From assembly GCF_009834515.1 (NCBI RefSeq), contig NZ_CP019426.1, positions 248,001 through 312,000 of the forward strand: DNA of 64,000 nt. The letters are read 5' to 3'. The notes under the pieces are model-generated. The model ran no database searches. It was not told the origin of the DNA and saw nothing but the letters and a program-made list of their open reading frames with translations. The translations under genes were made by a program, and so were the position numbers. Each line of letters opens with the position of its first letter. The stretch's first letter is position 1. Shown piece by piece: positions 1,200 through 51,079 of this stretch. The stretch is from Pseudomonas sp. R84 (GTDB taxonomy: Bacteria > Pseudomonadota > Gammaproteobacteria > Pseudomonadales > Pseudomonadaceae).

Positions 1200-2144
1200 T
1201 CAGACAGCGAGTCCGTCCAGCGAACAGACTTCCTCATCCACCGCATCAATCGCCTTGATCTGCTCAATCATCGCCTCGGCCAACGGCGATAACCGATACC
1301 CCGCCCGGCTGACAATCCCATAACGCGTATACAGCTCCTCAAGATCATCGGCCAACCCTTCAATCCGCAAACACACCAATTCACCCTTGGCCTGGTGCAG
1401 CGCATCGGAATACGCACCGACAATCCCGATCGCATCCGAGCGCAGCACCACACTGAGCAGACTCGAGCTGTTTTCACATTCGACATTCGGGGTGAAATCC
1501 GGCCGCCCACTAAGGTCAACGATGACCTTGCGCAAGTTTGGCGGCCGAATACTCACCGCCAGCGGATAGCTCATCAATTGCTCTGCGCTGACCTTATCGA
1601 AAGCCGCCAGCGGATGCCCTGCGCGGCAACAGAAATGCCATTTACGCGGCCGCAACCGGTGCGTCAGATAATCCGGATCCGCCTCGAAGTAGCGTGTATC
1701 GGCGACAAAGAATTCGAATTCCTCGCTCATCAGTCGCTTGCTCAGGCTCTGCCAGTCATCGACCTGAAACTGCACCCGCGCTTTCGGATAGCGCCCGATG
1801 AAGCTGCCAATCGCCCGAGGAATCAAACCCGCTGCCGGCGCTGGCCCACAACCGAAGCGCAATTCCCCCGCCTCCAGCCCGTTGAACTGGCTGATCTCGT
1901 TGGCCATTTGCTGCGCGCCACTGACCAGTCGCCGCGCATGTTCGAGCAGGACCTGGCCCTGTTTGGTCGGCGGTAATTCCTTGCGTCCGCGATCAACCAA
2001 CTGACAGCCAACGCTGTGTTCCAGCGCCTGAATGCTGCGGCTGAACGCCGACTGCGACAGGTTCACCGCCTGCGCGCCGGCGACGAAGCTGCGTTGTTCA
2101 GCCAGGGCGATGAAGTGACGAAGTTGGCGCAAGTCGATATGCAT
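1200..2144 (-). CDS. LysR-family transcriptional regulator
   Basis: 314 aa, the usual LysR length. The N-terminus has the winged helix-turn-helix (residues about 4-63, with LRHFIALAEQRSFVAGAQAV followed by an LSQSAFSRSIQALE recognition helix). The rest matches the two-lobed periplasmic-binding-like effector domain. It is transcribed away from the TonB receptor/arylsulfotransferase pair and toward the sulfatase, the normal position for a LysR protein that controls its divergent neighbour. A sulfur-box candidate (2241-2266) sits in the shared intergenic region, about 97 bp upstream of this start. The effector is unknown; a sulfate ester, sulfate or a sulfur metabolite is a guess from context. 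Confidence 0.9.
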   Translation of the reverse strand: MHIDLRQLRHFIALAEQRSFVAGAQAVNLSQSAFSRSIQALEHSVGCQLVDRGRKELPPTKQGQVLLEHARRLVSGAQQMANEISQFNGLEAGELRFGCGPAPAAGLIPRAIGSFIGRYPKARVQFQVDDWQSLSKRLMSEEFEFFVADTRYFEADPDYLTHRLRPRKWHFCCRAGHPLAAFDKVSAEQLMSYPLAVSIRPPNLRKVIVDLSGRPDFTPNVECENSSSLLSVVLRSDAIGIVGAYSDALHQAKGELVCLRIEGLADDLEELYTRYGIVSRAGYRLSPLAEAMIEQIKAIDAVDEEVCSLDGLAV

Positions 2145-2240
2145 TTTTCACATAAAAAATATCCGGGAAATGCATTGGATATGCATTAGGTCGACTCCTT
2201 ATAAAGGCAATCTCTTATGCAGTAAATATCTGTAAATACA

Positions 2241-2266
2241 TAAATAAATAACTTAAAAGAATATGC
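2241..2266 (-). promoter_or_regulatory. Candidate sulfur-starvation box, divergent LysR/TonB-receptor promoter region
   Basis: Read on the minus strand it begins GCATATTCTTTTAAGTTA and ends TTTATTTA. It is nearly identical to the copy upstream of tauA (51054-51079) and close to that upstream of the DszC-type operon (32413-32439). It may act on the LysR gene, the TonB receptor gene or both. CysB or the local LysR protein are possible binders. The function is inferred from recurrence and context. Confidence 0.5.
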
Positions 2267-4693: not shown

Positions 4694-6037
4694 ATGTTGC
4701 GTATCAAAACGGCTTTGCCGGTGTTGCTGTCCGGCGCAGTGCTCAGCGCCGGTGCCTTCGCCGCACCGAGTGTTTACCCGACGGGCGTCACTCGTTACGA
4801 CCCGAACAAGGCGTTCAACCAGTACGTGATTTTCAGCGGCGCCGACAAGCAGACGCACCTGATCGACATGAACGGCAACGAGGTGAAAACCTGGCCACAG
4901 GCAGGTTTCCCGTCAGCGATCATCGACCCGAAACTGGTCGGCGGAGAGCGTGGGCATGTGTTGCTGCAACTGAGTGACAAGGATCCCGGCAAGCTCGGTT
5001 CGGCCGGCAATGGTCTGGGCAATCAGAGCGTCGGTGAGCTGGATTGGCACGGCAAAGTCGTCTGGCAGTGGGGTGACAAGGCCCCCGGTGGCGCGGCGCA
5101 ACAGCACCATGATCAGCGCCGTTTGAGCAATGGCAACACCGTGGTGCTGGCGAACAAGGTGCACAAGGTCAAAGGCTTCAAAGTGCCCGAGGTGATCGAC
5201 GATGCGATCTATGAAGTCAGTCCCGAAGGCGCGGTGAAATGGCAGTGGCTGGCCTCGGAGCATCTCAATGAATTCGGCTTCACGGCCGAACAGTTGAAGC
5301 TGGTGCGCGCCAGTGAAAATCCGGACTACCTGCACATCAACAACCTCAGCCTGGTCGGGCCGAACAAGTGGTTTGATGCCGGTGACAAACGCTTCAATCC
5401 GGACAACCTGCTGATCGATTCACGCAACGCCAACTTCATCGCGATCATCGACAAGAACAGCGGCAAAGTGGTTTGGCGTCTTGGCCCGAATTTGCCGCTG
5501 ATCAACCCGAAAACCGCGCAGAAACTGCCGCGCCCGGTGGATCAGTTTGTCGGTCAGCATGATGCGCACATCATTCCGGCCGGATTGCCCGGTGCTGGCA
5601 ATCTGCTTGTGTTCGACAACCAGGGTTCGGCGGGTTATCCAAACGTCACCCTCGGCTTGATTTCCGGCTCGCGCGTGTTGGAAATCGATCCGCAGAAAAA
5701 CGAGATCGTTTGGCAGTACAGCGCGGCAAATTCGAAGCAACCAGGGTGGGCGTTCTACAGCTCGTTTATCAGCAGTGCGCGGCGCTTGCCCAATGGCAAC
5801 ACGTTGATCGACGAGGGCATGAACGGACGGTTTTTCCAGGTGACGGCCAGCGGCGAAAACGTCTGGGAATACGTCAGTCCGTATCTCGGCAAGGCACCGG
5901 GCAGCGACGCGATCAGCAACTGGGTGTATCGGGCACTGCCTGTGAGTTATGACTGGGTGCCAACGGGGACGCCACGCTCCGAGACGGCGGTTATTGCACC
6001 CGTTATCGGCGTGGAGCAAACCAATGCCAGTCGTTAG
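4694..6037 (+). CDS. Periplasmic arylsulfate sulfotransferase (ASST family)
   Basis: 447 aa with a Sec signal peptide (cleavage near AFA-AP, residues 21-25). The mature part has repeated propeller-like blades such as GKVVWRLGPN and LPNGNTLIDEGMNGR, and conserved histidines in QQHHDQRR (138/139), YLHINN (214) and GQHDAHI (289/292). These fit the bacterial arylsulfotransferase family, which moves sulfate from one phenolic ester to another acceptor without PAPS. It is the second gene of the TonB-receptor unit. Within a scavenging system it might strip or exchange sulfate from aromatic sulfates in the periplasm. I see no DsbA/DsbB-like partners next to it, unlike some enterobacterial assT loci. 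Confidence 0.85.
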   Translation: MLRIKTALPVLLSGAVLSAGAFAAPSVYPTGVTRYDPNKAFNQYVIFSGADKQTHLIDMNGNEVKTWPQAGFPSAIIDPKLVGGERGHVLLQLSDKDPGKLGSAGNGLGNQSVGELDWHGKVVWQWGDKAPGGAAQQHHDQRRLSNGNTVVLANKVHKVKGFKVPEVIDDAIYEVSPEGAVKWQWLASEHLNEFGFTAEQLKLVRASENPDYLHINNLSLVGPNKWFDAGDKRFNPDNLLIDSRNANFIAIIDKNSGKVVWRLGPNLPLINPKTAQKLPRPVDQFVGQHDAHIIPAGLPGAGNLLVFDNQGSAGYPNVTLGLISGSRVLEIDPQKNEIVWQYSAANSKQPGWAFYSSFISSARRLPNGNTLIDEGMNGRFFQVTASGENVWEYVSPYLGKAPGSDAISNWVYRALPVSYDWVPTGTPRSETAVIAPVIGVEQTNASR

Positions 6038-6774: not shown

Positions 6775-6790
6775 GTATATTCCATAATGA
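6775..6790 (+). promoter_or_regulatory. Candidate sulfur-box-like sequence upstream of tonB-exbB-exbD
   Basis: GTATATTCCATAATGA shares GxATATTCC with the copies ahead of the DszC-type operon and tcyJ, in the same orientation relative to the gene it precedes. The A/T tail is less similar than in the tauA copy. If real, the TonB motor would be induced together with the sulfur-linked receptors. Confidence 0.3.
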
Positions 6791-6932
6791 CCTATGCATA
6801 ACGTTAAAGATTACTTTCGGAGATAAGCGTCAAGCCCAATGATTCACCCATCGATTCGCCGTGGGGGATTCAACAAAACGGTTGATCGGCAGTTTTTGTA
6901 GAGAACGCAAAAAGACCGCAGGGAGTGAATCA

Positions 6933-9167: not shown

Positions 9168-9298
9168 GAAAGGATCTAAAGTCATACACAATACTCATAT
9201 TCAATTCAGATCTTAATAAATAGCTTCTTATTCCTTAACGAATATAAATCCCCTCCCTATACTCGTTCAGGAACAGACACGACGCAGGAGAGCTCCCC

Positions 9299-9880: not shown

Positions 9881-9934
9881 TTTTTATTTCTTTCAACGCC
9901 CCCGTCTCCCGGCGGTTTTGGGCGGGAGTCTGCC

Positions 9935-10892: not shown

Positions 10893-10900
10893 GGAATATG
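10893..10900 (-). promoter_or_regulatory. Sulfur-box core upstream of metQ
   Basis: GGAATATG (CATATTCC on the minus strand) matches the core found ahead of the DszC-type operon and tcyJ. It lies about 134 bp before metQ, in inverted orientation relative to it, and lacks the long A/T tail. A 6-bp stem CCGGGA/TCCCGG lies at 10922-10941 without a following T run. I see no SAM-riboswitch-like structure. Confidence 0.25.
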
Positions 10901-11033
10901 AAGCTGAATAAACGTTATTGTCCGGGAATAAAAAATCCCGGTATTGTCCGACCCACGCCAGCGATATCACTTCACTGGCACACGTATTAATGCCGTCGTC
11001 GATGACGACCGTGATTTTCGATAAGGACACTGC

Positions 11034-12479: not shown

Positions 12480-12761
12480 GTTCTCTTCCTTGTTATGAGT
12501 TTGGCCGGGGGAGTCTGGCCAAAAGCTGTTCGTCCTTGGAGGGCTTTCGTGAAAAAAAGATCCGTCCTACAGCGCAAAGGAAAATAGCCTTCTTATTCCT
12601 TCCCGGCAAACCCACAAGATAGTTTTTTGGGTGATATCAATATGCTTTAACGGTATTTAAATTCTTGTTTTTATACCTATAAAGTCGGTGCTTGCCGGAC
12701 AGCCATCTGCTGTCCTTGGACTGCGCCACCGTCGCTTACCGAGCGGCGTCCAGGACGTTTC

Positions 12762-25741: not shown

Positions 25742-26386
25742 TCAGCGCTTGTTCAACCCCCGCGCCAAGCGATCCCCACCCAACTGAATCACCGCCACCA
25801 ACGCCACCAGCAACACGATCACCGTCAACATGATCTGACTGTCAAAGCGCTGATAGCCGTAGCGATAGGCGATATCCCCCAACCCGCCAGCGCCAATCGC
25901 CCCGGCCATCGCGGAAGAGTTGATCATCGTCACCAATGTGATAGTGAACCCGCCGACAATCCCCGGCAGCGCCTCCGGCAACAGCACATGCCAGACAATG
26001 TGCCAACGCCGGCAACCCATTGCCTGCGCGGCTTCGATCAAGCCATGATCAACCTCGCGCAGACTCACTTCGGCAATCCGCGCAAAGAACGGAGTTGCCG
26101 CAATCGTCAGTGGCACAACGGCGGCCCACACGCCGTAGGTGGTGCCGACAATCAACCGGGTAAACGGAATCAGCGCGACCATCAGAATCAGAAACGGGAC
26201 CGAGCGGAACAGGTTAACGAACGCGCCCAGAGCACGGTTGAGTACCGGCGCTTCATAGATCCCGCCCTTGTCGCTGGTGACCAGAATCACCGCCATGGGA
26301 ATCCCCACCAGCAACGCGATCAGCGAGGACACGCCGACCATCAGGAACGTGTCGATAAAACCCTGCAACAAGCGATCAAACCACAT
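25742..26386 (-). CDS. metI: MetI methionine ABC transporter permease
   Basis: 214 aa with five membrane segments and the coupling loop [20 protein letters not shown], conserved in MetI. It forms the methionine channel with MetN. It overlaps metN by 11 bp and ends the leftward operon. Because that operon begins with sulfur-releasing oxygenases, the importer may be expressed under sulfur starvation and might accept an oxidised or unusual methionine derivative; this is inference. Confidence 0.93.
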
Positions 26387-27497
26387 AACCCACTACCTCC
26401 ACTCGCTGCGCCCACGGTGCGGCGCGCTCGCGCAATTGTTCGGCGCTGAGCGCTGAGCCGCTGACGGCCAATAACAGTTGCCCCAATGCATGACCCTGAA
26501 TCCGTTCTACGCCGCCCTGCAGCAACTTAACCCGGCCACCTAGTGACGCGAACAGTGCCGCCAGATCCGGCTCATCACTGGCGCTGCCGGTGAACTGCAA
26601 GCGCAGCACCACAGCGGCGTCGGAGGATGGCGGCTGCGCGTGCAAGCGGCTCTGCAATTCCTCCGGCAACGCGTGTTGCAGCGGTGCAAGCAAGGTTTGG
26701 CTGACCTCGTGCTGCGGATTGCCGAACACTTCCCAGACCGGGCCTTGTTCGACAACCTGTCCGTGTTCAAGCACGACAACGCGGTCGCAGATTTCGCGGA
26801 TCACTGCCATCTCATGAGTAATCAGAACGATGGTCAGGCCCAGGCGTTGGTTGATCTCGCGCAGCAGGCCGAGGATCGACTGGGTGGTCTCTGGATCGAG
26901 CGCCGAAGTGGCTTCGTCGCAGAGCAAGATATCCGGGTCATGCACCAACGCGCGGGCGATGCCGACACGCTGTTTCTGCCCGCCGGAAAGCTGCGCCGGA
27001 TAAGCCTTGTGCTTTTCTTGCAGGCCAACCAGTTCGAGCAGTTCGCGCACCTTTTTCTCGCGTTGTTCTTTCGGCACACCCGCGACTTTCAGTGGCAGTT
27101 CGACGTTCTGCCAAACGGTCTTGGCCGACATCAGATTGAAGTGCTGGAAGATCATGCCGATGCGCCTGCGTAGCGCTACCAGACGGTCTTCATCGAACTC
27201 GCCGATGTCGACCTGATCGATCAGCACTCGCCCCGAGGTCGGTTGTTCCAGACGATTGATCGTACGGATCAGCGATGACTTGCCAGCGCCGCTGCGGCCG
27301 ATGATGCCGAACACTTCGCCGCGCTGAATCGCCAGATCGATGCCTTGCAGCGCCGCGACCGGGCCTTGACGGCCGTTGTAGGTTTTACCCAAGCCGATGA
27401 AACGTACGTGGGCGCGATTCAACTCGGGGTGCAGCTCGGTTTTTTCAGCATTGTGTGGCTCTGGAATCTCCAGTCGCCGTTGGATCGCGGCCGTCAT
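26376..27497 (-). CDS. metN: MetN methionine ABC transporter ATP-binding protein
   Basis: 373 aa. It has about 30 extra N-terminal residues before the ATPase core. Then come Walker [10 protein letters not shown], signature [15 protein letters not shown], Walker [14 protein letters not shown] and the His in LITHEM. A C-terminal regulatory NIL-type domain (about residues 285-373) follows, which in E. coli MetN binds methionine and inhibits uptake when it accumulates. The ATG at 27497 has GGGAAAG upstream; a TTG 15 nt earlier is less likely. Confidence 0.93.
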
Positions 27498-27499
27498 GC

Positions 27500-28309
27500 T
27501 CAGCTTTCCCAACCGGCTTGATACAGCTTGCCGTGGGCTTTATCCAGCGCCGCACGAACGACCGGCGAATGCTGGTAAATGTCGACGAATTTGATCAGGC
27601 GCGGATCGGTTTTGCTCTTCGGCTGGATGACGAACTGAATCACGTATTCCTTGTGGTCGAGACCGTCGAACAGCAGTGCCGAACCGGCATCGAAGGTCTT
27701 CGCCAGACGAATGTAGGCCGGGTAACCCTGGACCAGATCAGCGTCGTCGTAGGCGCGCACCAGTTGCACTGCTTCGACCTGGAGGATTTTGATTTTCTTC
27801 GGATTTGCGACGATATCGTCTTCTGTAGCCTTGTAGCCGACGCCCGGTTTCAGCGTGATCAAACCGGCCTTGGCCAGCAGTTGCAGACCGCGACCGCTGT
27901 TGATCGGATCATTGGCGATGGCGACGCTGGCGCCTTCTGGCAGCTGATCGAAGCTTTTGTATTTTTTCGAGTAGAGGCCGACGTTGTTGATGATCCCCGG
28001 GGCGAATGGCACCAGATCAAAACCCGACGCGGCTTTGGCGTTCTCCAGGAACGGGATGTGCTGGAAGTAGTTCACGTCGATGTCGCCGGCGGCGAGGCTG
28101 ACGTTCGGTGCGATCCAGTCAGTGAATTCCACCAGTTCGACTTTCAGACCCTGTTTGGAGGCCTCTTCGACGGCGGCTTCCAGCGGGATGGCGAAGGCGG
28201 CGGTGGTGCCGATTTTCAGGGGGGCGTCGGCGGCGAAAACGGCCGAGCTGAACAGGCCGAGGGCCAGGGCCAGTGCTTTGACTGGGTGGGACAGGCGTTT
28301 TTTGGTCAT
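27500..28309 (-). CDS. metQ: MetQ-type methionine-binding protein of the metQNI set
   Basis: 269 aa of the NlpA family. The signal peptide ends near VFAAD and, like the copy at 11034, lacks a lipobox cysteine. Conserved family segments include [20 protein letters not shown], and [22 protein letters not shown]. It differs substantially from the stand-alone MetQ, so the two may have different ligands. It lies 3 nt from metN and about 118 bp, including a REP pair, from the DszA-type gene upstream. Confidence 0.93.
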
Positions 28310-28359
28310 GTGAGTTTTCCAGTCAGTGCATAAATTTGTGGTGTATTGGATGGCCTCAT

Positions 28360-28423
28360 CGCGAGCAGGCTCGCTCCCACAGGGGAAATGCATTCCAAAT
28401 GTGGGAGCGAGCCTGCTCGCGAA
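28360..28423. repeat. REP-type inverted repeat pair within the operon
   Basis: TCGCGAGCAGGCTCGCTCCC and its complement around about 22 bp. It separates the oxygenase genes from metQNI on the same strand, and could stabilise or partly separate the upstream message. Confidence 0.93.
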
Positions 28424-28427
28424 GCTT

Positions 28428-29786
28428 TTAGCGGCGAAATGCGGAACCCGTATGTTGCTCAGGTAGCTGCGCTTCACCTTGAAACAGCTTCTCGCGCAAG
28501 CTGCCACTGTCGTACGCAGTCTTGTACGACCCGCGCCGCTGCAGCTCCGGAATCACCAGCTCAATAAAATCGACATAGCTCTCCGGCGTAACAATCCGCG
28601 TCAGGTTGAAGCCATCAAGGCCGGTCTCGGCGATCCATGACTCCAGCTCATCCGCTACTTGTTCAGGCGAACCGACCACGGTGATGTAACGTCCACCGAG
28701 GGCGTGCTGTTCAAGCAGCTTGCGCCGGGTCCAGTCGTTGTTCTGCAGGTTCTTGGTAGCCGACTGAATGGCGTTGCTCTTCACGTACTGGATCGGTTCG
28801 TCGATTTCGTACAGGGAAAAGTCGATGCCGGTGGAGGCGGAAAAATGCGCCACGCCGGCCTCGGCGCTGGCGTAGCTCAGGTATTCGGCGTGCTTGGCCC
28901 ATGCGGCCTCTTCGGTCGCGCCGACTATGACGTTGAGGCCCATGAACACCTTGATGTCCTCGGGGTTGCGTCCCGCTTCGACGGCACTGGCGCGCACCTT
29001 GTCGACCTGAACTCTGGTCGACGGTTTATTCTGGCCGCTGATGAATACACACTCGGCGTGACGCCCGGCGAAGAGCAAGCCGCGATCGGAACTGCCGGCC
29101 TGAAACAGCACCGGCGTGCGTTGTGGCGAAGGTTCACAAAGGTGATAACACTCGACCTGATAAAACTCGCCCTTGTGCTCGACCTTGTGCACTTTTTCCG
29201 GGTTAGCGTAGATCCGCTGCTCGCGGTCGTTGAGTACGGCGCCGTTTTCCCAACTGCCTTCCCAAAGTTTGTAGAGCACTTCCAGGTACTCGTCGGCCTG
29301 GTCATAGCGGCGGTCATGTTCCACCTGTTCGCTGAGGCCCATGGCTTTGGCGGCGCTATCGAGATAACCGGTGACGATGTTCCAGCCCACGCGACCACGG
29401 CTCAGATGATCGAGCGTGGACATGCGCCGGGCGAACAGATACGGCGGTTCGTAGGTGAGGTTGGCGGTCAGGCCGAACCCCAGATTTTTGGTCACGGCAG
29501 CCATGGCTGAAACCAGCAACAACGGGTCGTTGACCGGCAACTGGATCGACTCTTTCAGCGGGACGTCGACCGAGTTCTGATAGACGTCATACACACCGAC
29601 GATGTCGGCAATGAACAAGCCGTCGAACAGCCCGCGCTCAAGCAATTGCGCCAGTTCGGTCCAGTATTCGAGGGTGTTGTAGCGCGTTGAGGTGTCGCGC
29701 GGATGCGTCCACAAGCCGTGGTTGATGTGGCCGATGCAGTTCATGTTGAACGCATTGAGCAGGATCTTCTTTTTCGCCGCGCTCAT
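28428..29786 (-). CDS. FMN-dependent monooxygenase, NtaA/SnaA/DszA family
   Basis: 452 aa luciferase-like enzyme. Family hallmarks are NMNCIGHINHGLWTHPRD, SRGRVGWNIVTGYLDSAA, and FQAGSSDRGLLFAGRHAECVF. Such enzymes use reduced FMN and oxygen to open C-S or C-N bonds (sulfones, nitrilotriacetate). A flavin reductase is needed but none is encoded nearby. Its start overlaps the stop of the upstream flavoprotein gene by one base (TGATG). With the two DszC-like genes it mirrors the DszC-then-DszA logic of sulfur removal from organosulfur compounds. Confidence 0.93.
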   Translation of the reverse strand: MSAAKKKILLNAFNMNCIGHINHGLWTHPRDTSTRYNTLEYWTELAQLLERGLFDGLFIADIVGVYDVYQNSVDVPLKESIQLPVNDPLLLVSAMAAVTKNLGFGLTANLTYEPPYLFARRMSTLDHLSRGRVGWNIVTGYLDSAAKAMGLSEQVEHDRRYDQADEYLEVLYKLWEGSWENGAVLNDREQRIYANPEKVHKVEHKGEFYQVECYHLCEPSPQRTPVLFQAGSSDRGLLFAGRHAECVFISGQNKPSTRVQVDKVRASAVEAGRNPEDIKVFMGLNVIVGATEEAAWAKHAEYLSYASAEAGVAHFSASTGIDFSLYEIDEPIQYVKSNAIQSATKNLQNNDWTRRKLLEQHALGGRYITVVGSPEQVADELESWIAETGLDGFNLTRIVTPESYVDFIELVIPELQRRGSYKTAYDSGSLREKLFQGEAQLPEQHTGSAFRR

Positions 29787-30979
29787 CAGATCGTCCCTCG
29801 CAACGGAGGGTTTTCGTCATTGAGGTAGTAGTTGCCCACCGCGTGATATTTCCAGCGCACCGGGTCGTGCAAGGTGTGCACGCGGGCGTTGCGCCAATGA
29901 CGGTCGAGGCCGTGCTCGATCAGCGTGGCCTGGCTGCCGGCCAGTTCGAACAATGTGCTGCCAGCGGTGAGGGAAATTTCAGTGCTGATCGCGCGGGCTT
30001 CGGCGACGGCAATCGATGCGGCGGCGACAGTTTCTGCATTGGTCTCGGCTTGTGCGGCGTCGAGGAATTCGCCGGCACGTTCGAGCAAGGCTTCGGTGGC
30101 GTGTAAGCGAATGCTCAAGTGGCCGAAGCTCTTCAACGTCAGCGGGTCTTCGGTGGCTTTGTCGTTGCCGGAATCGATCCACGGGCGCGTCTTGCTGCGT
30201 ACGAAGTGCAGGGCGTCTTCGTAAGCGGCGCGGGCGATGCCGGTGTCGATGGCGGCGTGAAGGATCTGCGCCAGCGGGCCGACGGTGGTTGGACGTTCAA
30301 AGGCGCTTTGAAACGGCAGCACGTCTTCAGCCGCGACGTACACGTCTTCGAACACCACCGAACCGCTGCCGGTGGTGCGTTGACCGAAGCCGCTCCAGTC
30401 GTCGATCACGGTCAGGCCTTTGCTGTCGCGGGGGACGAAGGCCAGTTGCTGCACGCCGTTTTCATCAACTACTGAGGTCGGAATGCGCTGCGCGTAAATC
30501 GCGCCGGTCGCATAAAACTTGCGACCGTTGATGCGATAGCCGTCACCGTCGCGTTTGAGACTGGTGACGCGGTCGTGAGCGGTTTTTGTGCCCAGTTCAG
30601 CCAGGGCATTACCGAAGCGCTGGCCGGCGAGCACTTCACCATACAGCCGTTGTTTTTGCGCATGGCTGCCGTTTACGCGCAGCACTTCCAATGCATAAAA
30701 ATGGTTCTGCGGAATCTGTCCGAGCGAGCCGTCGGCCTGGGCGATCAGGGCAATGACTTTGGCCAACGTCACGTTGGAAACGCCAGCGCCGCCGTACTCC
30801 TTGGGCACGCTGATGCCCCACAGACCGGAGCGGGAAAATACCTCGAGCTCCGGCAGTGGCAAGCGTCGCTCACGGTCGCGCAGGGCGCTGTCGCGTTTGA
30901 AGTCTTCGGCCAGGTCGCTGGCGACGATCAGGGCTTGCTCATCGCTGGTGATGACCGCGACGTGATGGGAAAGCGTCAT
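29786..30979 (-). CDS. SfnB/DszC-type acyl-CoA-dehydrogenase-fold monooxygenase (copy 2)
   Basis: 397 aa from the ATG at 30979. It has N-terminal helices, the VPKEYGGAG flavin-binding turn, a middle beta domain (INGRKFYATG), and the C-terminal segment HWRNARVHTLHDPVRWKYH, a family signature near the end. The best-studied relatives, DszC and SfnB, use reduced flavin to oxygenate sulfur compounds. It is clearly paralogous to the next upstream gene (same end motif, roughly half identical by eye), so the pair arose by duplication and diverged. Confidence 0.92.
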   Translation of the reverse strand: MTLSHHVAVITSDEQALIVASDLAEDFKRDSALRDRERRLPLPELEVFSRSGLWGISVPKEYGGAGVSNVTLAKVIALIAQADGSLGQIPQNHFYALEVLRVNGSHAQKQRLYGEVLAGQRFGNALAELGTKTAHDRVTSLKRDGDGYRINGRKFYATGAIYAQRIPTSVVDENGVQQLAFVPRDSKGLTVIDDWSGFGQRTTGSGSVVFEDVYVAAEDVLPFQSAFERPTTVGPLAQILHAAIDTGIARAAYEDALHFVRSKTRPWIDSGNDKATEDPLTLKSFGHLSIRLHATEALLERAGEFLDAAQAETNAETVAAASIAVAEARAISTEISLTAGSTLFELAGSQATLIEHGLDRHWRNARVHTLHDPVRWKYHAVGNYYLNDENPPLRGTI

Positions 30980-31004
30980 GTTTTTCTCCAGATGTCTGGT
31001 CGTC

Positions 31005-32246
31005 TCAGATCCAGGAATGGCGAGCCGGTAAAGTGCCGTTGAGGCGATAGGCGCCGACCGCGTGATATTTCCAGCGCACCGGGTCATGCAACGTGTGCAC
31101 GCGGGCGTTGCGCCAGTGCCGGTCGAGATTGAATTCGGCGAGGGTCGCGCGGCTACCGGCCAGTTCGAACAGCTTTTCGCTGGCGAGCAAAGAAATTTCG
31201 GTGGTCAGTACTTTCGCTTCGGCCACGGCGATCGAAGCGCGGGCGGCGGATTCGGCAGTGAGCGGTGCAGCGTGCACTTGATCGAGAACTTGCCCGGCCT
31301 TGCGCAGCAGCGCTTCGGCGGCGTGCAGTTCGATTTTCAGTTTGCCGATGTCGGCGATCACATAGAGGTCATCGCTGGCGCGATCAACCTTGGCGTCGAT
31401 CCACGGCCGTGCGCGGGTTTTGACGAACTCAATGGCGTCATCAATGGCGCCACGGGCGATGCCGGCGTCGATCGCGGCTTGAATCAGTTGCGATACCGCG
31501 CCTTGGGTGTTCGGGGTTTCGTTGATCTTCCAGTTGTCGACCACCAGGCTCGACTCTACGCGCACGTTGTTCAGCAGAATCGTACCGCTGGCGGTGGTGC
31601 GCTGACCGAACCCTGACCAGTCGTCAACGATGCGCAGCCCCGGCGTGCCGCGGCGGACGAAGGCCAGCACTTGCTTGCCGTCATCGTTGAGCGCTTTGAC
31701 CGCAACCCAGTGCGCAAACAGCGCGCCGGTGGAGTAAAACTTCTGGCCATTGATCACGTAATCGTCGCCGTCGGCTGTGATCCGCGCTTTCAATTCCAGG
31801 GTGTTTTTTGTGCCGCGTTCCGGGCCGGCATTGCCGATCCGCCAGCCTTCCAGAACGCTCTGGAACAGCTGTTTTTTTTGCGCTTCGGTGGCGCTGCCGA
31901 GCACCAGATTGATGATGCCGAACTGGTTTTGTGGAATCTGTCCCAGCGCCGGATCAGCGGCGGAAATGATCGCGAACACCTCGGCCAGGGTGACGAATGA
32001 AACCTGCGGGCCACCGTATTCGCGCGGGATGGCGATGCTGCCTAAACCACTGCGGGTGAACTGTTCGATTTCCGACCATGGCAGCTTGCGCTGACGATCG
32101 CGTTTGGCGGCCTGCACGCGGGCGACTAGCGCCAGCTCATGGGCGGCCTTGATGGCTTGTGCGTCGTTGCGCAAAACCTGCGCGGGCAACAACAACGGGG
32201 CGATGTCCAGATCCGACTGGACGTTTGCGTCTGCCAGACTGGACAT
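31005..32246 (-). CDS. SfnB/DszC-type acyl-CoA-dehydrogenase-fold monooxygenase (copy 1)
   Basis: 413 aa, same family as the downstream gene, with IPREYGGPQ, INGQKFYSTG, DWSGFGQRTTASGTILLNNV and HWRNARVHTLHDPVRWKYH. It is the first large gene of the sulfur-scavenging operon. Its AAGGAG ribosome site lies inside a 22-codon leader frame whose TGA overlaps the ATG (TGATG), so its translation is probably coupled to that peptide. A sulfur box lies about 167 bp upstream. The copy-1/copy-2 pair could form a heteromer or act on two substrates. Confidence 0.92.
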   Translation of the reverse strand: MSSLADANVQSDLDIAPLLLPAQVLRNDAQAIKAAHELALVARVQAAKRDRQRKLPWSEIEQFTRSGLGSIAIPREYGGPQVSFVTLAEVFAIISAADPALGQIPQNQFGIINLVLGSATEAQKKQLFQSVLEGWRIGNAGPERGTKNTLELKARITADGDDYVINGQKFYSTGALFAHWVAVKALNDDGKQVLAFVRRGTPGLRIVDDWSGFGQRTTASGTILLNNVRVESSLVVDNWKINETPNTQGAVSQLIQAAIDAGIARGAIDDAIEFVKTRARPWIDAKVDRASDDLYVIADIGKLKIELHAAEALLRKAGQVLDQVHAAPLTAESAARASIAVAEAKVLTTEISLLASEKLFELAGSRATLAEFNLDRHWRNARVHTLHDPVRWKYHAVGAYRLNGTLPARHSWI

Positions 32247-32314
32247 CAGTGCCGCTCCTTGGCTGCACGCAATGCCCTGGCGATCTGCACTGGGGTGATT
32301 GTGTTCCGGACCAT
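32246..32314 (-). CDS. 22-residue leader peptide, translationally coupled to the DszC-type gene
   Basis: ATG to TGA, 22 codons, with GAGGTAGG about 4 nt upstream. The stop shares a base with the next gene's ATG, whose ribosome site is inside this frame. The peptide includes ITPVQIARALRAAKERH, a basic amphipathic helix. The same frame is open upstream to an ATG at 32389 (47 codons in all, with one Cys and across the hairpin at 32336-32359). It could be a regulatory leader or simply open the ribosome site. I have not seen it described. Confidence 0.55.
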   Translation of the reverse strand: MVRNTITPVQIARALRAAKERH

Positions 32315-32335: not shown

Positions 32336-32359
32336 GAAAAACGCCGCAAAATTGCGGCG
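32336..32359 (-). terminator. Terminator-like hairpin in the operon leader (possible attenuator)
   Basis: On the minus strand an 8-bp stem CGCCGCAA / TTGCGGCG with a 2-nt loop is followed by TTTTTC. It lies after the sulfur box and before the leader peptide, so it would cut short most transcripts unless relieved. No upstream gene on this strand needs a terminator here: the nearest, the two-repeat protein, ends at 32515 and is separated by the box. Confidence 0.55.
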
Positions 32360-32412
32360 AACGAAAGAATGTCCGGTGGTCCGGTTCATATACCCTAAGC
32401 GTGTATAAATAT

Positions 32413-32439
32413 TAAATAAACTAACTTTTAGGAATATGC
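32413..32439 (-). promoter_or_regulatory. Candidate sulfur-starvation box, DszC/DszA/metQNI operon
   Basis: Read on the minus strand it begins GCATATTCCTAAAAGTTAG and ends TTTATTTA. It shares the order GCATATTC, A/T run, AAGTTA, TTTATTTA with the copies at 2241-2266 and 51054-51079. About 167 bp upstream of the first large gene. CysB, the usual LysR-type regulator of sulfur genes in Gram-negatives, is the leading candidate binder. Confidence 0.55.
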
Positions 32440-33752: not shown

Positions 33753-34502
33753 TCAGGCGTGATTCAGAAACTTGCTGAGGAACTGCTGCGTGCGTTGTTC
33801 TTTCGGATTGGCAAACAATGCTTTGGCTTCGCCTTGCTCGACGATCACGCCCTTGTCGAAGAACACCACACGGTTGGCCACGTCGCGGGCAAACCCCATT
33901 TCGTGGGTGACGATCACCATGGTGCGTTTCTCTTCGGCGAGGCCACGAATGGTCGCCAGCACCTCGCCGACCAGTTCCGGGTCGAGGGCCGAAGTCGGTT
34001 CGTCGAAGAGAATCACTTCCGGCTCCATCGCCAGCGCTCTGGCTATCGCCACGCGCTGTTGCTGACCACCGGAGAGACGACGCGGATAAGCGTCTTCCTT
34101 ACCGGCGAGTCCGACCTTGGCCAGCAGCTTCTTGCCCAGAGCAACCGCCTCTTCGCGCGGTATCTTCTTGACCACGATCGGGCCTTCGATGACGTTCTCA
34201 AGCGCCGTGCGATGGGGGAACAGGTTGAAGTTCTGAAAGACGAAGCCAACGTGCTGGCGCAGGTTGCGCACCAGACTCTGCTGCTGATTCAGCGGGCGGC
34301 TGGTATCGATTTCGATATCGCCGACCTTGATCCGGCCGCTGGTGGGTTGTTCAAGGAAATTCAGGCAGCGCAGGAACGTCGTTTTCCCCGAACCGCTTGG
34401 GCCGATGATCGCGACGACTTCGCCTTCCTTGACCTCCAGGTCGATGCCGTTGAGCACGACCTGACCCTTGAATTGCTTGGTCAGTTTTTCCACGACAATC
34501 AT
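33753..34502 (-). CDS. tcyN: L-cystine ABC transporter ATP-binding protein TcyN
   Basis: 249 aa, [11 protein letters not shown] start. Walker [11 protein letters not shown]-loop [10 protein letters not shown], signature [15 protein letters not shown], Walker [14 protein letters not shown], His in IVTHEMG. It drives cystine uptake with TcyL and TcyJ. The gene begins 2 nt after tcyL ends. It is the last gene of the dcyD-tcyJ-tcyL-tcyN group, whose order matches other pseudomonads and resembles E. coli yecC/yecS/fliY/dcyD. Confidence 0.93.
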
Positions 34503-34504
34503 CG

Positions 34505-35221
34505 TCAGGACTCCTGGTCGTGCCGATTGACCCGCTCTTCCAACTTGTTCTGGAAGTGCGAAAGCACCGTGGCCAGAATCCAGTAGATCAGCGCGGCGGC
34601 AAGATACATGGTGAAGACTTCGAAAGTCCGGGCGGTAATCAGTTGCGCCTGACGGAACAGCTCCGGCACCTGAATGGTGGCGGCCAGTGCCGTGTCCTTG
34701 ACCAGCGAAATGAAGCTGTTGCCCAGCGGCGGCAACGCCGTGCGCATTGCTTGCGGCAGGATGGCCCGGCGCAGGGTTTGCGCGCGGGTCATGCCGATAC
34801 TCGCAGCAGCTTCCCACTGACCACGCTCGATCGAACCGATCGCGGCGCGGAGGATTTCACAGGCGTAAGCGGCCATGTTCAGCGAGAAGCCGATCAGCGC
34901 CGCTGGCAGCGGATCCAGTTCGATTCCCAGTTGCGGGAAGCCGTAATAGATCACGAACAGTTGCACCAGCAACGGCGTCCCGCGAAAGAACGACACGTAG
35001 ACGCGCGCCAGCCAGCTCACTGATTTGAAGCGCGACAAGCGCATCAACGCCAGGCCGAAGCCGAGCAGCAAGCCGAAGAACATCCCGCCGAGGCTGAGGA
35101 CTACCGTGTAGTACGCGCCCTTGAGCAGAAAGGGCGCGGAGTCCAGCAACAGCGCCGATGTTTCGGCGAGTTGCTGGCTCAACTGCGGGAAGTGCGCTTC
35201 GAATTGAAATCCAACTTCCAT
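34505..35221 (-). CDS. tcyL: L-cystine ABC transporter permease TcyL
   Basis: 238 aa. About five membrane segments, [20 protein letters not shown] and the coupling loop [20 protein letters not shown], typical of the polar amino acid permease family (E. coli YecS). It probably forms a homodimer, since only one permease is encoded. It starts at the very base where tcyJ ends, so the two overlap by one nucleotide. Confidence 0.93.
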
Positions 35222-36021
35222 TATTTAGTGACGTCTGCGTTGAAGTATTTCTCGGACAGCTTCTTCAGAGTGCCGTCTGCACGCAGTTCGTCGATGGCCT
35301 TGTTTACGGCAGCCAGTAGTTCCGGCTCACCTTTACGCAGGGCAACACCGGCTTCCTGACGGGAGAAAGCTTCGCCGGCGGCCACGGTTTTCGGGGCTTT
35401 CTTGGCGTATTCCAGTGCAGCCAGACGGTCGATCAGAATGGCGTCGGTGCGGCCGTTGTTCAGGTCAGCGAACTTGGTCGGATCATCGTCGTAGGTACGC
35501 ACGTCGGCACCCGGCACGTTGGCGCGGACCCATTGTTCGTAGTTGGTGCCCAGGCCAACACCGACTTTTTTGCCGGACAGGTCATTGGCGGTCTTGATGT
35601 TCAGCGCCGCTTCTTTGCTCTTCAGCACCAGCGCCTGAATCCCGGAAACGGTGTACGGCTCGGAGAAGTCATACTTCTTCTTGCGCTCGTCGGAGATGGT
35701 GACCTGGTTGACTACAACGTCCAGACGCTTGGATTCCAGCGCAGCGAGAATGCCGTCCCACTTGGTCGGTTGAATCTTGGCTTTGACGCCGAGTTTTTGC
35801 GCCAGCGCTTCAGAGAGTTCAACTTCGAAACCGGACAGTTTGCCGTCGGCATCAACGAAGCTGAACGGTGGGTAAGTGCCTTCCAGGCCGACGTTGATAA
35901 CGCCTTTGTCCTTGATCTGTTGCAGCTGCTCACCGGCCACTGCCTGGCCGATCAGACCGGCGCTCAGCGCCAGGCCCAGCGAACCCACCAGCAGATTGCG
36001 ACGTAGTGCGGAAAAATTCAT
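35221..36021 (-). CDS. tcyJ: L-cystine-binding periplasmic protein TcyJ (FliY-like)
   Basis: 266 aa. The signal peptide ends near QAVAGEQ. It has VGLEGTYPPFSFVDADGKLSG, VVVNQVTISDERKKKYDFSEPY and GVGLGTNYEQW. These fit the FliY/TcyJ cystine binders. In enteric bacteria it also binds diaminopimelate weakly. A sulfur-box core (36206-36214) lies about 185 bp upstream. Confidence 0.92.
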   Translation of the reverse strand: MNFSALRRNLLVGSLGLALSAGLIGQAVAGEQLQQIKDKGVINVGLEGTYPPFSFVDADGKLSGFEVELSEALAQKLGVKAKIQPTKWDGILAALESKRLDVVVNQVTISDERKKKYDFSEPYTVSGIQALVLKSKEAALNIKTANDLSGKKVGVGLGTNYEQWVRANVPGADVRTYDDDPTKFADLNNGRTDAILIDRLAALEYAKKAPKTVAAGEAFSRQEAGVALRKGEPELLAAVNKAIDELRADGTLKKLSEKYFNADVTK

Positions 36022-36186: not shown

Positions 36187-36214
36187 TTGAAATGTTATTC
36201 TTTATTGGAATATG
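36187..36214 (-). promoter_or_regulatory. Candidate sulfur-box copy upstream of tcyJ
   Basis: On the minus strand GCATATTCCAATAAAG is followed by an A/T-rich tail. The first nine bases match the 32413-32439 copy exactly; the tail diverges. It overlaps the edge of the gap before a REP pair that separates tcyJ from dcyD. Confidence 0.4.
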
Positions 36215-36230
36215 CATTATCTGTGGAAAA

Positions 36231-47378: not shown

Positions 47379-48221
47379 TCAACGAAAAAACGGCACATCC
47401 CCCAACACCGTCGCCCGCTGCATCACCCGTCGCGCCGGCCGATAGTCATCCACCGCGTAATGCTGCGTCACGCGGTTATCCCAGAACGCAATATCGTCCT
47501 GCTGCCAGCGCCAGCGAATGGTGAATTCCGGCCGCGTCGCATGGGCGAACAGAAACTTCAGAATCGCTTCGCTCTCGGTTTCCGACAGCTCATTGATCTT
47601 CGACGTGAAGCCTTCATTGACGAACAGCGAACGCCGCCCACTGACCGGGTGCGTACGAATCACCGGGTGCGACAGCGGCGGATTCTTGCGTCGTGCCTCT
47701 TCCCACTGCGCCAATGCTTCAGGCGTGTTGCCATAACGCTCCAGTGGAAACGAACGAGTGAAATCGTGGGTTGCAGTCAGCCCTTCCAGCAAGTCTTTCA
47801 GGGGTGCCGACAGCGCTTCATACGCGGCAATGCCGCTGGCCCACAACGTGTCGCCACCGAACTCCGGCAGCAACTTGGCGCTGAGCACCGCGCCCATCGC
47901 CGGCGTCGGCAGGAAGGTCACGTCGGTGTGCCAGATCGCGTTGTCACGCACGTCGGTGACGGCGGTGTCGAGGATCAGCACTTCCGGTTGTTCCGGTACG
48001 TTCGGGTAGATCGGGTGAATGTGCAGGTCGCCGAAATAGGCGGCGAAACGAGCCTGTTGCGGCGGCTCGATTGGCTGATTGCGGAAGAATAAAACCTGAT
48101 ATTTGAGCAGTGCCTGCTCGATCGCGTCGCGGTGTTCCAGGCTCAGCGGCTGGCTGATGTCGACGCCGCTGATCTGCGCGCCGAGGGCCGAGCTTAATGG
48201 GGTGATGTTCAGGCTGCTCAT
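47379..48221 (-). CDS. tauD: Taurine dioxygenase TauD
   Basis: 280 aa. Fe(II)/2-oxoglutarate family: HTD facial triad part (WHTDVTF, His98 and Asp100), distal His254 (TQHYAVDDY) and following Arg residues that hold 2-oxoglutarate. It oxidises taurine to sulfite and aminoacetaldehyde. It is the last of the tauABCD genes, about 140 bp from tauC with a REP between. Alkylsulfatase AtsK is a close relative, but the tauABC context favours taurine. Confidence 0.93.
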
Positions 48222-48254
48222 GGTCTTTCTCTTCGAATTCGGGGTTCAAGCTTT

Positions 48255-48344
48255 TGTAGGTGTGAGCCTGCTCGCGAATGCGGAGTGTCAGGCTAAAGTG
48301 CAGTGACTGATCCGACGCTTTCGCGAGCAGGCTCACTCCTACAG
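48255..48344. repeat. REP-type inverted repeat pair between tauC and tauD
   Basis: TGTAGGTGTGAGCCTGCTCG and its complement-type partner about 50 bp apart. It lies inside the tau gene order on the transcribed strand. Confidence 0.9.
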
Positions 48345-48363
48345 GGGATTCACATGAACGTAG

Positions 48364-49203
48364 TCAGTGGGCCTGGCCGTGCCACGGCACCAGTTTGCGC
48401 TGCAGGGCACGCAGGCCCATTTCCATCGCGAAGGCGATCAGGGCGATGACCAGAATCCCCAGCACCACCACGTCGGTGACGAGGAACTGCGCGGCCGATT
48501 GCACCATAAAGCCCAAACCGCTGGTGGCAGCAATCAGTTCGGCCGCGACCAGCGTCGACCAGCCAACGCCCAGACCAATGCGCACACCGGTGAGAATGTC
48601 CGGCAGAGCGCTCGGCAAAATCACATGACGAATCAATTGCACGCGAGTCGCGCCCAGCGACTGCGCCGCACGCAATTTCGCTGGATCAACCGTGCGCACA
48701 CCGGTGGCGGTAGCAATCGCAATTGGCGCGAAAATCGCCAGATAGATCAGCAGCACTTTCGACAACTCACCGATGCCGCACCAGATCACGATCAGCGGCA
48801 GATAGGCCAGCGGTGGGATAGGGCGGTAGAACTCGATCAGCGGATCGAGCACGCCACGGGCAATGCGGTTGGCACCGATGGCGATGCCCACCGGCACGGC
48901 GGTTAGAATCGCGAAACCCAGACCCAGACCGATACGACTCAGGCTGGCGCCAAGGTGCTGCCACAAGGTCGAATCCATGTAACCGGTGGTCGCCAGCAAC
49001 CAGCCCTTCTGCAAAACAGCGGACGGTGGCGGCAGAAACAGTGGTTCGATCAAGCCAGTGGCGGTCACTGCCCACCAGATCGCCAACAAGGCAAATAGCG
49101 TCAGCAGGCTGATCCAGCGCGTACTGAGGCTACGCCGTACGGGTATCGCCGCCGATGCGCTGACGGGTTTTACCGCCGCCGAGGAAACGTCGTAACTGCT
49201 CAT
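48364..49203 (-). CDS. tauC: Taurine ABC transporter permease TauC
   Basis: 279 aa, six membrane segments with the SsuC/TauC-type coupling loop [20 protein letters not shown]. It overlaps tauB by 4 bp. It imports taurine, and perhaps other sulfonates, together with TauB and TauA. Confidence 0.92.
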
Positions 49204-49994
49204 GCGCGCTCCTGCCGTTGCCCGGCGCTGCGTTGCGAGAACACTTTGCTCAGCACGTGTTCGCGGGTTTCGATAAAGCGCGGATCGGATTTGATCGCAC
49301 GTGCTGACTCGCCAGCGGCGTAACGCTGACCGAAATCCAGGTGCAGACGCTCAACGATCTGCCCCGGATTCGGCGCGAGCAGAATCAGGTCAGTGGCGAG
49401 GAACACCGCTTCTTCAATGTCGTGGGTAATCAGGAAAACCGGTTTGGCCGTGCGCTGCCAGACTTGCAGCAACAACTCCTGCATCTGTTCGCGGGTGAAC
49501 GCGTCGAGGGCGCCGAAAGGCTCGTCCATCAGCAATACACGCGGGTCAGCGGCGAGGGCGCGTGCGAGGCCGACGCGCTGTTTCTGGCCACCGGAGAGTT
49601 GCCAGATACGGCGGCTTTCGAAACCGGAAAGATCAACCAGTGCGAGCATTTCGCGGGCGATCTTTTCGCGTTTTTCTTTGGCGACACCGGCCAGTTCCAG
49701 ACCGAATGCGACGTTGGCCAACACGTCCTGCCAAGGCAGCAACGCGTCGTCCTGGAACACCACGCCACGTTCGGCGCTCGGGCCTTTGACCGGCACGCCG
49801 TCGAGGGTGATGCGCCCGGCGCTTGGTTCGACGAAACCGGCAATCAGGTTCAACAGCGAAGTTTTGCCACTGCCGGACGGGCCGAGGGCGACCAGCAATT
49901 GCTGAGGCCCCAGGGTCAGAGAAATATCCGCCAGCACCGGTGTCGGGCTGCCCGGGTACTGTGCGCTGATGCGCTCCAGCTGTAGCAAGGCCAT
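49200..49994 (-). CDS. tauB: Taurine ABC transporter ATP-binding protein TauB
   Basis: 264 aa. Walker [10 protein letters not shown], signature [15 protein letters not shown], Walker [13 protein letters not shown] and [12 protein letters not shown], the usual SsuB/TauB form. It provides energy for TauC. It starts 16 nt after tauA. Confidence 0.93.
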
Positions 49995-50010: not shown

Positions 50011-50988
50011 TCAGTTGGTGATGAATTTGGCGCTGACGTACGGCGCGTAGTCCGGCAGAACGGCTTCGACCTTGCCTTGCTCCTTGAGGAACGCGGCGGT
50101 GTCGGTGATGGCTTTGGTTGTCGGCGCGCCGAGGGTGACGACCTGATCAGCGGCCAGCGGGTAGACGTTGCCTTGCAGCAGCAATGGGATGTCGCTGGCC
50201 TTGGCGCCAGAGAGTTTCACCAGTTTGTCGACGTTGGATTGGTCGGCGAGCCAGGCTTTCGGGTCTTTGCGGTAATCGGCGTAGGCGTCGAGGGTGACCT
50301 TGGCGAACGCGGTGACGATTTCCGGGTGCTTCTCGGCGAAGTCTTTGCGCACGATCCACGCATCGAAGGTCGGTGCACCGAACTTGGCCAGTTCGCCGGA
50401 GGTGATCAGCACTTTGCCGTTTTCCTTGGCCACGCCGAGTGCCGGATCCCACACGTAAGTGGCGTCGATGTCACCGCGTTTCCATGCGGCAATGATCGCT
50501 GGTGGGGCGAGGTTGAGCACGGTGACTTTCGATGGATCGATGTTCCAGTGCTTCAGCGCCGCCAGCAGGCTGTAGTGACCGGTCGATACGAACGGCACGG
50601 CGATTTTCTTGCCGATCAGATCTTGCGGGGTCTTGATGCCGGAACCGTCTCGAGCGACCAATGCTTCGGCGGCGCCGATCTGGGTCGCGATAAGGAATGT
50701 TTCGACCGGGACTTTGCGGGTGATCGCCGCGGTCAGCGGGCTCGAACCGAGGTAGCCAATCTGCACATCACCGGAGGCGATGGCGGCAATGATGTCGGCG
50801 CCGTTATCGAACTTGCGCCAGGCGATATCGGCTTTGGTGGCTTTTTCGTAAGCGCCGTCAGCCTGGGCGACTTTCGCCGGGTCAACGGTGGTTTGGTAGG
50901 CGACGGTGAGGTCGGCGGCCTGAGCCAGAAAACTCGCGGCAGCCAGGGAGGCCACGGCGAGCAGGCGAAGCGGGAAATTCAGTTTCAT
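50011..50988 (-). CDS. tauA: Taurine-binding periplasmic protein TauA
   Basis: 325 aa. The signal peptide ends near [23 protein letters not shown] start, then [20 protein letters not shown] and [20 protein letters not shown], as in TauA/SsuA. It binds taurine for TauBC. First gene of the operon; the start has TGGAGCTC upstream. A sulfur box lies 66 bp before the ATG. Confidence 0.94.
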
Positions 50989-51053: not shown

Positions 51054-51079
51054 TAAATAAATAACTTTTTAGAATGAGC
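51054..51079 (-). promoter_or_regulatory. Candidate sulfur-starvation box, tauABCD promoter
   Basis: On the minus strand it begins GCTCATTCTAAAAAGTTA and ends TTTATTTA. The downstream part is identical to the copy at 2241-2266 over AAGTTATTTATTTA. It lies about 66 bp upstream of tauA, a plausible activator-site distance. Confidence 0.6.

What the first reader, a model, noticed from the sequence alone, without database searches (positions are those of the whole stretch)
32413..32439. A shared motif precedes several sulfur-related operons
Three sites are strikingly alike when read on the same strand: 2241-2266 (LysR/TonB receptor/arylsulfotransferase), 32413-32439 (DszC/DszA/metQNI) and 51054-51079 (tauA). 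All have GC[A/T]xATTC, an A/T run, AAGTTA, then TTTATTTA. A fourth at 36187-36214 (tcyJ) keeps GCATATTCC only, and weaker cores occur at 6775 (tonB) and 10893 (metQ). The genes all fit sulfur scavenging. A CysB-dependent or other sulfur-starvation regulon is the natural explanation, but I know of no published motif with this exact shape.
Basis: partly seen in the sequence, partly recalled or inferred. Interest (0 to 1): 0.75.

Follow-up and report, generated by a model that had tools for sequence, protein, structure and literature searches.

The report
Conserved sulfur-scavenging promoter box in Pseudomonas
A short DNA box sits just upstream of several Pseudomonas gene sets that scavenge sulfur from taurine and other organic compounds; it is kept across much of the genus and is most likely where the sulfur-starvation switch protein CysB binds.

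Summary
GCnnATTC-N4-AAGTTA, then TTTATTTA, occurs exactly three times in the 6.6 Mb genome, all in the window: before tauABCD, before the sfnB/dszA-like/met-type genes, and between a LysR gene and a TonB receptor. In 149 genus genomes it has 117 exact matches against 21 for a reversed control. Of the 117, 104 fall into three sequence types, and 28 of 30 fetched loci lie at those operons.

The adjacent LysR is not the shared regulator: 39 of 70 genomes with a tau or sfnB site lack its ortholog. CysB is in 149 of 149. Related boxes with another right half precede tcyJ, tonB, metQ and the sbp region.

Best reading: a CysB-type activator site just upstream of the promoter. CysB binding is inferred, and the link to the CysB-bound sfnECR promoter is thin (strict core in 1 of 30). 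The kind of system is known; the exact box was not found in the open papers searched, but RegPrecise, supplements and subscription papers were out of reach.

The parts
2241..2266 (-). Strict box, site 1: GCATATTCTTTTAAGTTATTTATTTA, facing the LysR gene (1200-2144, -), about 45 bp from the TonB-receptor ATG (2311, +) on the other side
   Evidence: a slightly relaxed box is in 37 of 39 LysR upstream regions (one search prints 37 of 40; one of the 40, L187, I had fetched from the wrong side of its gene)
32413..32439 (-). Strict box, site 2: GCATATTCCTAAAAGTTAGTTTATTTA, upstream of the sfnB1-sfnB2-dszA-like-metQNI genes
   Evidence: 39 sfnB-type exact matches in 149 genomes
51054..51079 (-). Strict box, site 3: GCTCATTCTAAAAAGTTATTTATTTA, upstream of tauABCD
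   Evidence: a slightly relaxed box is in 47 of 50 tauA upstream regions examined
36194..36215 (-). Related box before tcyJ: GCATATTCCAATAAAGAATAAC (left half kept, right half GAATAA)
   Evidence: ATTC-N5..7-[GC][AT][ACT]TA in 23 of 30 close and 4 of 20 distant tcyJ upstream regions; strict core in 0 of those 20
6775..6809 (+). Related box before tonB (6861, +): GTATATTCCATAATGACCTATGCATAACGTTAAAG
   Evidence: ATATTC in 13 of 14 recovered orthologs, from 20 regions fetched
10893..10913 (+). Related half-sites before metQ (11034, +): GGAATATGAAGCTGAATAAAC
   Evidence: GGAATAT and GAATAAA in 15 of 15 recovered orthologs, from 20 regions fetched
9213..9247 (+). Related promoter block before the serine-hydrolase (9299) and sigma-54 activator (9935) genes: TTAATAAATAGCTTCTTATTCCTTAACGAATATAA
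   Evidence: CTTATTCCTTAACG[AG]ATAT in 16 of 17 recovered orthologs, from 20 regions fetched
12636..12667 (+). Weak candidate box 95 bp before the amino-acid (cystine/glutamine-type) ABC transporter genes (12762-15715); conservation not tested
   Evidence: matrix score 19.9, fifth in the window; genes
2170..2186 (.). Palindrome ATGCATTGGATATGCAT close to the LysR start: candidate operator of that LysR itself
   Evidence: seen by eye; function inferred
1200..2144 (-). LysR-type regulator (PF00126 + PF03466); only 51.6 bits to the CysB model, whose cut-off is 436
2311..4670 (+). TonB-dependent receptor
   Evidence: start at 2311 chosen by eye from its ribosome-binding sequence (the ORF list gives 2277)
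4694..6037 (+). Arylsulfotransferase (PF05935)
31005..32246 (-). SfnB-family sulfur acquisition oxidoreductase (TIGR04022, 601.3 bits against a cut-off of 430.9)
29786..31087 (-). Second SfnB-family oxidoreductase (TIGR04022, 621.5 bits)
28428..29786 (-).
25742..28507 (-). MetQNI-type ABC transporter genes (NlpA lipoprotein, ATPase with NIL domain, permease)
50011..50988 (-). tauA (TIGR01729)
47379..49994 (-). tauB, tauC, tauD
33753..36021 (-). tcyJ, tcyL, tcyN cystine transporter

Best explanation
The box is a sequence-specific activator site of the Pseudomonas sulfur-starvation response, most likely bound by CysB, the genus-wide LysR-type master regulator of sulfur use. GCnnATTC and AAGTTA would be the protein contacts, and the TTTATTTA run would join the site to the promoter. 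When sulfate and cysteine run low, CysB bound just upstream of the -35 region would recruit RNA polymerase to tauABCD, to the sfnB/dszA-like/met-type genes and to the LysR gene beside the TonB-receptor/arylsulfotransferase genes. Shown here: the box, its conservation in many genomes of the genus, its gene neighbours, its constant orientation, and that the neighbouring LysR is not needed. Inferred: the contacts, that the protein is CysB, that it activates, the position relative to the transcription start, and the effector.
For: 1. Specificity: 3 of 3 exact matches in the own genome are at sulfur genes. Of 5 relaxed matches a fourth is before the second tauA copy.
2. Conservation: 117 exact matches against 21 control in 149 genomes (21 is my sum of its control columns). 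28 of 30 fetched loci are at tauA, sfnB1 or the LysR gene. Majority-base frequency in the box 0.92, 0.93, 0.98 (tauA, LysR, sfnB) against 0.44, 0.60, 0.62 at 60 to 20 bases upstream.
78 of the 80 listed rows are Pseudomonas.
4. CysB family over its cut-off in 149 of 149 genomes; the local LysR ortholog (76% identity or more) in 42 of 149. 39 of 70 genomes with a tau or sfnB site lack that ortholog, and 24 of 70 lack any match to it at 1e-40.
5. One relative's msuE/sfnE promoter (L386) has ATTC-AATA-AAGTTA. Its operon (FMN reductase, acyl-CoA-dehydrogenase-like protein, sigma-54 activator; SsuD-family gene) resembles sfnECR, which I recall as directly CysB-bound in P. putida (Kouzuma 2008; title only).
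6. Related boxes precede tonB, metQ, close tcyJ orthologs and the sbp region.
7. T-N11-A is present in 4 of 4 window boxes.
8. E. coli: the 18-position core prefers a recalled CysB promoter set, AUC 0.70; 0 of 60 column-shuffled matrices reach it.
9. Tau proteins (TauA, TauC) rise 2- to 6-fold in sulfur-starved P. aeruginosa (PMC12581299, passage).
Against: No binding or expression data for these sites. Dyad symmetry does not exceed shuffled sequence. The strict core is in only 1 of 30 sfnE upstream regions, and not in the own one; ATATTC is in 14 of 30. Pseudomonas cysP upstream regions do not show the box. 0 of 20 distant tcyJ regions have the strict core. In E. coli the longer matrix does no better than composition (17 of 60 shuffled matrices reach it); tcyJ ranks low with all three matrices, cbl with two, and cysP and tcyP are not outstanding with the two longer ones. 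In the alignments the bases downstream of the box are also strongly conserved (0.90 at +22 to +42 for tauA and LysR; 0.97 at +42 to +80 for LysR), so conservation is not confined to the box, and those alignments used only sequences that have it. CysB being in every genome makes co-occurrence uninformative. A second global regulator would fit most of the same data.
Confidence: 0.72

Rival explanations
1. The same kind of activator site, but for a different global regulator of organosulfur use (another LysR-family or CysB-like protein), with CysB acting only indirectly.
For: The strict box is at organosulfur operons and is not seen at cysP; E. coli uses CysB together with the related Cbl at tau and ssu (PMC4501297, passages).
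Against: Related boxes also precede the sbp region, metQ and close tcyJ orthologs, which suggests one family of sites. At E<=1e-120 one CysB-family protein per genome was found in 149 of 149; a more distant paralog would not show at that threshold.
Confidence: 0.2
2. The local LysR-type regulator at 1200-2144 binds all three sites.
For: It lies next to site 1, and 19 of 19 genomes with the LysR-type exact site carry its ortholog.
Against: 39 of 70 genomes with exact tau or sfnB sites lack its ortholog, and 24 of 70 lack any match at 1e-40. A separate palindrome lies close to its own start (by eye).
Confidence: 0.03
3. The box is only an A/T-rich core promoter or UP-element, with no specific regulator.
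For: The sites are A/T islands (35-38% G+C around them, against 59% for the window), and the consensus scan finds no sigma-70 promoter in the sfnB region.
Against: The letters ATTC and AGTTA are kept at three unrelated operons, and no other place in the genome has the exact core.
Confidence: 0.04
4. A sigma-54 promoter controlled by an SfnR-like activator (a sigma-54 activator is encoded at 9935-10867).
For: SfnR regulates sulfate-starvation genes of P. putida (titles of cited papers).
Against: No TGGCAC-N5-TTGCW match with up to 2 mismatches lies at any of the three sites.
Confidence: 0.01

Closest known systems
CysB regulon of Pseudomonas (sfnECR and other sulfate-starvation operons of P. 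putida; CysB-1 and CysB-2 gene sets of P. aeruginosa; CysB ChIP-seq of P. syringae)
   Same: Same kind of genes (taurine, SfnB-type, cystine and sulfate uptake), same genus, CysB in all 149 genomes searched. P. aeruginosa CysB gene sets: PMC9023270 (passages). P. syringae CysB ChIP-seq with over 1000 peaks: PMC11957545 (passages).
   Different: No CysB binding seen by me for these sites; the P. syringae peak tables are supplements I could not open. The strict box is in 1 of 30 sfnE upstream regions and not seen at cysP.
CysB/Cbl sites of E. coli and Salmonella
   Same: Upstream of tau and cys promoters; the 18-position core weakly prefers these promoters.
   Different: The longer box is not recognisable there beyond composition. 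The Salmonella half-site description is recalled, not tested.
LysR-family T-N11-A boxes
   Same: T-N11-A present in 4 of 4 window boxes.
   Different: No dyad symmetry above shuffled sequence, whereas the published extended LysR motif is an inverted repeat, CTATA-n9-TATAG (PMC5002191, passages).

Membership tests
CysB operator | Bound by CysB in vitro or in vivo | not testable with these tools
   No binding data for these sites in the passages read.
CysB operator | Lies upstream of sulfur-starvation genes | tested here: met
   28 of 30 loci; 112 of 119 stretches.
CysB operator | Regulator present in the genomes that have the site | tested here: met
   CysB in 149 of 149; uninformative because it is universal in the sample.
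CysB operator | Same box at the promoter with published direct CysB binding (sfnECR) | tested here: inconclusive
   Of 30 sfnE-type upstream regions: strict core 1, ATATTC 14, the looser ATAT[TC][TC] 27, GGAATA 26. The published binding is recalled; only the paper's title was seen.
CysB operator | Core recognisable at E. coli CysB/Cbl promoters | tested here: inconclusive
   Core18 AUC 0.70, reached by 0 of 60 shuffles; core+8 AUC 0.68, reached by 17 of 60 shuffles. The third matrix was not tested by shuffling.
LysR-type box | T-N11-A spacing | tested here: met
   4 of 4 window boxes; a weak criterion in A/T-rich DNA.
LysR-type box | Inverted-repeat (dyad) symmetry | tested here: not met
   Best dyads 0.53-0.67 against shuffled means 0.64-0.68.
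Operator of the adjacent LysR (1200-2144) | Site and regulator occur together | tested here: not met
   39 of 70 genomes with tau/sfnB sites lack the ortholog.
Sigma-54 promoter (SfnR type) | TGGCAC-N5-TTGCW at the site | tested here: not met
   29 matches in the window with up to 2 mismatches (42.7 expected), none at the three sites.

The most novel reading that the evidence does not exclude
Pseudomonas CysB (or a CysB-like partner) reads at least two classes of box: a strict organosulfur class, GCnnATTC-N4-AAGTTA-TTTATTTA, at taurine, sfnB-type, arylsulfotransferase-region and a few msu operons, and looser ATATTC/GAATAA classes at cystine, methionine and sulfate-uptake genes. Operator spacing would then encode which sulfur source is tried first.
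Probability: 0.3. Interest if true: 0.5.

Novelty: new member of a known kind. Interest (0 to 1): 0.38.

Why it matters
It gives a concrete, testable operator for the sulfur-starvation response of environmental Pseudomonas, a genus known for using taurine, sulfonates and other organosulfur compounds. It separates a strict organosulfur class of box from looser relatives at other sulfur genes, lets genes be proposed for the regulon from sequence alone, and names the second tauA copy and perhaps the genes at 9299-10867 as candidate members.

Tried and rejected
One-mismatch search of the own genome: 22 matches against 13 control, not specific.

E. coli comparison: weak. Three matrices gave p of 0.014, 0.023 and 0.0065. 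Column shuffling was done for two of them: the core stood out (0 of 60), the longer one did not (17 of 60). I count only the core result, as suggestive.

Site at 2079940: no convincing downstream gene in its orientation; treated as chance or unknown.

Two of the 30 fetched loci (L043, L049) are not at sulfur genes. 13 of the 117 genus matches fall outside the three types, no more than the 21 control matches would suggest. Of the 119 database stretches, 7 lack a listed gene on the expected side: two are cut tau loci, two lie near weakly tauB/tauC-like genes, three are unexplained.

Adjacent-LysR and sigma-54 explanations: rejected. Dyad-symmetry reading: rejected.

Published motif: ten paper searches and term look-ups showed no such box. 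Passages were seen of PMC11957545, PMC12581299, PMC4501297, PMC3596284, PMC8234197, PMC5372953, PMC10949508, PMC9023270, PMC5002191 and PMC9508857; PMC8041468, PMC7532196 and PMC13086498 had no occurrence of the terms. RegPrecise, supplements and the Kouzuma 2008 paper could not be opened, so this is not proof that it is unpublished.

Circular steps: the sfnB set (14) was collected with the pattern itself, so its 14 of 14 says nothing about frequency. The conservation profiles use only sequences that have the box. The matrix was trained on tau, sfnB and LysR sites and must score those highly.

A mistake of mine: one of the 20 LysR regions (L187) was taken from the wrong side of its gene, so one search's 37 of 40 should be read as 37 of 39.

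Full report
What was checked. The three best sites of the finding are present as stated. Their shared core, TAACTTNNNNGAATNNGC on the + strand, matches all three with no mismatch; resampled windows hold 0.010 exact matches on average, 3 of 300 having any. In the 6.6 Mb own genome the exact core occurs three times, all in this window, and the reversed control not at all. One mismatch already destroys specificity (22 against 13 control). A longer form with up to three mismatches gives five matches and no control match: the three sites, a site before a second tauA copy near 6247580, and one unexplained place.

Conservation. In 149 genomes of the genus the exact core has 117 matches in 74 genomes, against 21 for the reversed pattern (the control total is my sum of its columns). 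So about half of the genomes have no exact match. By sequence type 46 are tau-like, 39 sfnB-like, 19 LysR-like and 13 other. Of 30 loci fetched, 28 lie at tauA, sfnB1 or the LysR gene; the two others do not. Taken from gene searches rather than from the pattern, 47 of 50 tauA upstream regions and 37 of 39 upstream regions of the LysR gene hold the box in a slightly relaxed form (a fortieth LysR region had been fetched from the wrong side of its gene). The 50 and 39 are those fetched, not every ortholog. In sequences that have the box, majority-base frequency is 0.92 (tauA), 0.93 (LysR) and 0.98 (pattern-selected sfnB) inside it, against 0.44, 0.60 and 0.62 at 60 to 20 bases upstream. The bases downstream, towards the gene, are also conserved (0.90, 0.90 and 0.86 for the next 20; for LysR 0.97 beyond that), so the whole promoter is under constraint, not the box alone.

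Database scan. 112 of the 119 have tauA, the LysR gene or tauB starting within 400 bp on the expected side. Two are cut tau loci, two lie near weakly tauB/tauC-like genes, and three are unexplained, two of them from non-Pseudomonas metagenome assemblies.

Anatomy. At all three sites the box has one orientation relative to the gene it faces: GCnnATTC, four free positions, AAGTTA, then TTTATTTA, then further conserved promoter-like sequence, then tauA, sfnB1 or the LysR gene. Site 1 therefore faces the LysR gene; the TonB receptor lies behind it at about 45 bp. The promoter-like hexamers that I see about 22-30 bp after AGTTA would put the core at roughly -60 to -36. That is read by eye; no transcription start is known, and the consensus scan finds no sigma-70 promoter in the sfnB region. 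T-N11-A spacing is met in 4 of 4 boxes but dyad symmetry is not above shuffled sequence.

Which regulator. The LysR protein at 1200-2144 has orthologs (76% identity or more) in 42 of 149 genomes. Of 70 genomes with an exact tau or sfnB site, 39 lack that ortholog and 24 lack any match at 1e-40. It is therefore not the shared regulator; a separate palindrome at 2170-2186 may be its own site. A sigma-54 promoter is not found at any of the three sites. CysB is present in 149 of 149 genomes, which allows but does not prove its role.

Links to other sulfur promoters. Upstream regions of relatives show conserved relatives of the box before tonB (ATATTC in 13 of 14 recovered) and metQ (GGAATAT and GAATAAA in 15 of 15), both from 20 regions fetched. 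Before tcyJ the arrangement ATTC-N5..7-[GC][AT][ACT]TA is in 23 of 30 close relatives but 4 of 20 distant ones, with the strict core in 0 of those 20. Before the small DUF2292 gene ahead of sbp (gene identified in the own genome), ATTCTTAAATAGT[AC]TTTTTAAGAATA is exact in 9 and looser in 13 of the 29 sbp/cysP-type loci from 15 genomes. A block before the 9299-10867 genes is kept in 16 of 17 recovered relatives. The msuE/sfnE promoter has the strict core in 1 of 30 loci, ATATTC in 14 and a looser ATAT[TC][TC] in 27. The one genome with the strict core has an operon of an FMN reductase, an acyl-CoA-dehydrogenase-like protein, a sigma-54 activator and an SsuD-family gene. I recall this type as the directly CysB-bound sfnECR of P. 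putida (Kouzuma and others 2008); the paper is not held and I saw only its title in reference lists. In E. coli the 18-position core weakly prefers promoters of a recalled CysB set (AUC 0.70; 0 of 60 shuffled matrices), while the longer matrix is explained by composition. Pseudomonas cysP upstream regions do not show the strict box.

Conclusion. The regulator and the response are known; the exact box was not found in the open literature searched, but RegPrecise, supplements (including a P. syringae CysB ChIP-seq, PMC11957545, passages only) and subscription papers were out of reach, so I call it a new member of a known kind. What remains open is direct binding and whether the strict box is an organosulfur-specific class.

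Noticed in passing
window 32246-32314 (-), 22 aa; alternative start at 32335: Small open reading frame MVRNTITPVQIARALRAAKERH ending in TGATG, which overlaps the sfnB1 start. A related small frame (20-33 aa as read) is present in 14 of 14 pattern-selected sfnB loci, which suggests a translated leader or translational coupling.
   Followed up: partly
window 32342-32359 (-): Terminator-like hairpin (CGCCGCAATTTTGCGGCG followed by T) between the box and the small reading frame in the sfnB leader. By eye it is present in some relatives and absent in others; possible attenuator.
   Followed up: no
window 32371-32386: Strongly conserved G/C-rich block around ACCGGACCACCGGACAT in the sfnB leader, just after the presumed start of transcription; function unknown.
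   Followed up: no
window 9213-9247: Very conserved promoter block TTAATAAATAGCTTCTTATTCCTTAACGAATATAA before a serine hydrolase gene and a sigma-54 activator gene: CTTATTCCTTAACG[AG]ATAT in 16 of 17 recovered relatives.
   Followed up: partly
L176-L184, upstream of the LysR gene in relatives: In several of these relatives a second, inverted GGAATAT-like half-site lies between the box and the TonB-receptor start (by eye), not seen in the window; it might serve the receptor.
   Followed up: no
G000:C1:2079940-2079962: A lone three-mismatch match near a gene I read as cysH, GCTCATTTCGAAAAGTTATCGAT, with no clear target in its orientation.
   Followed up: partly
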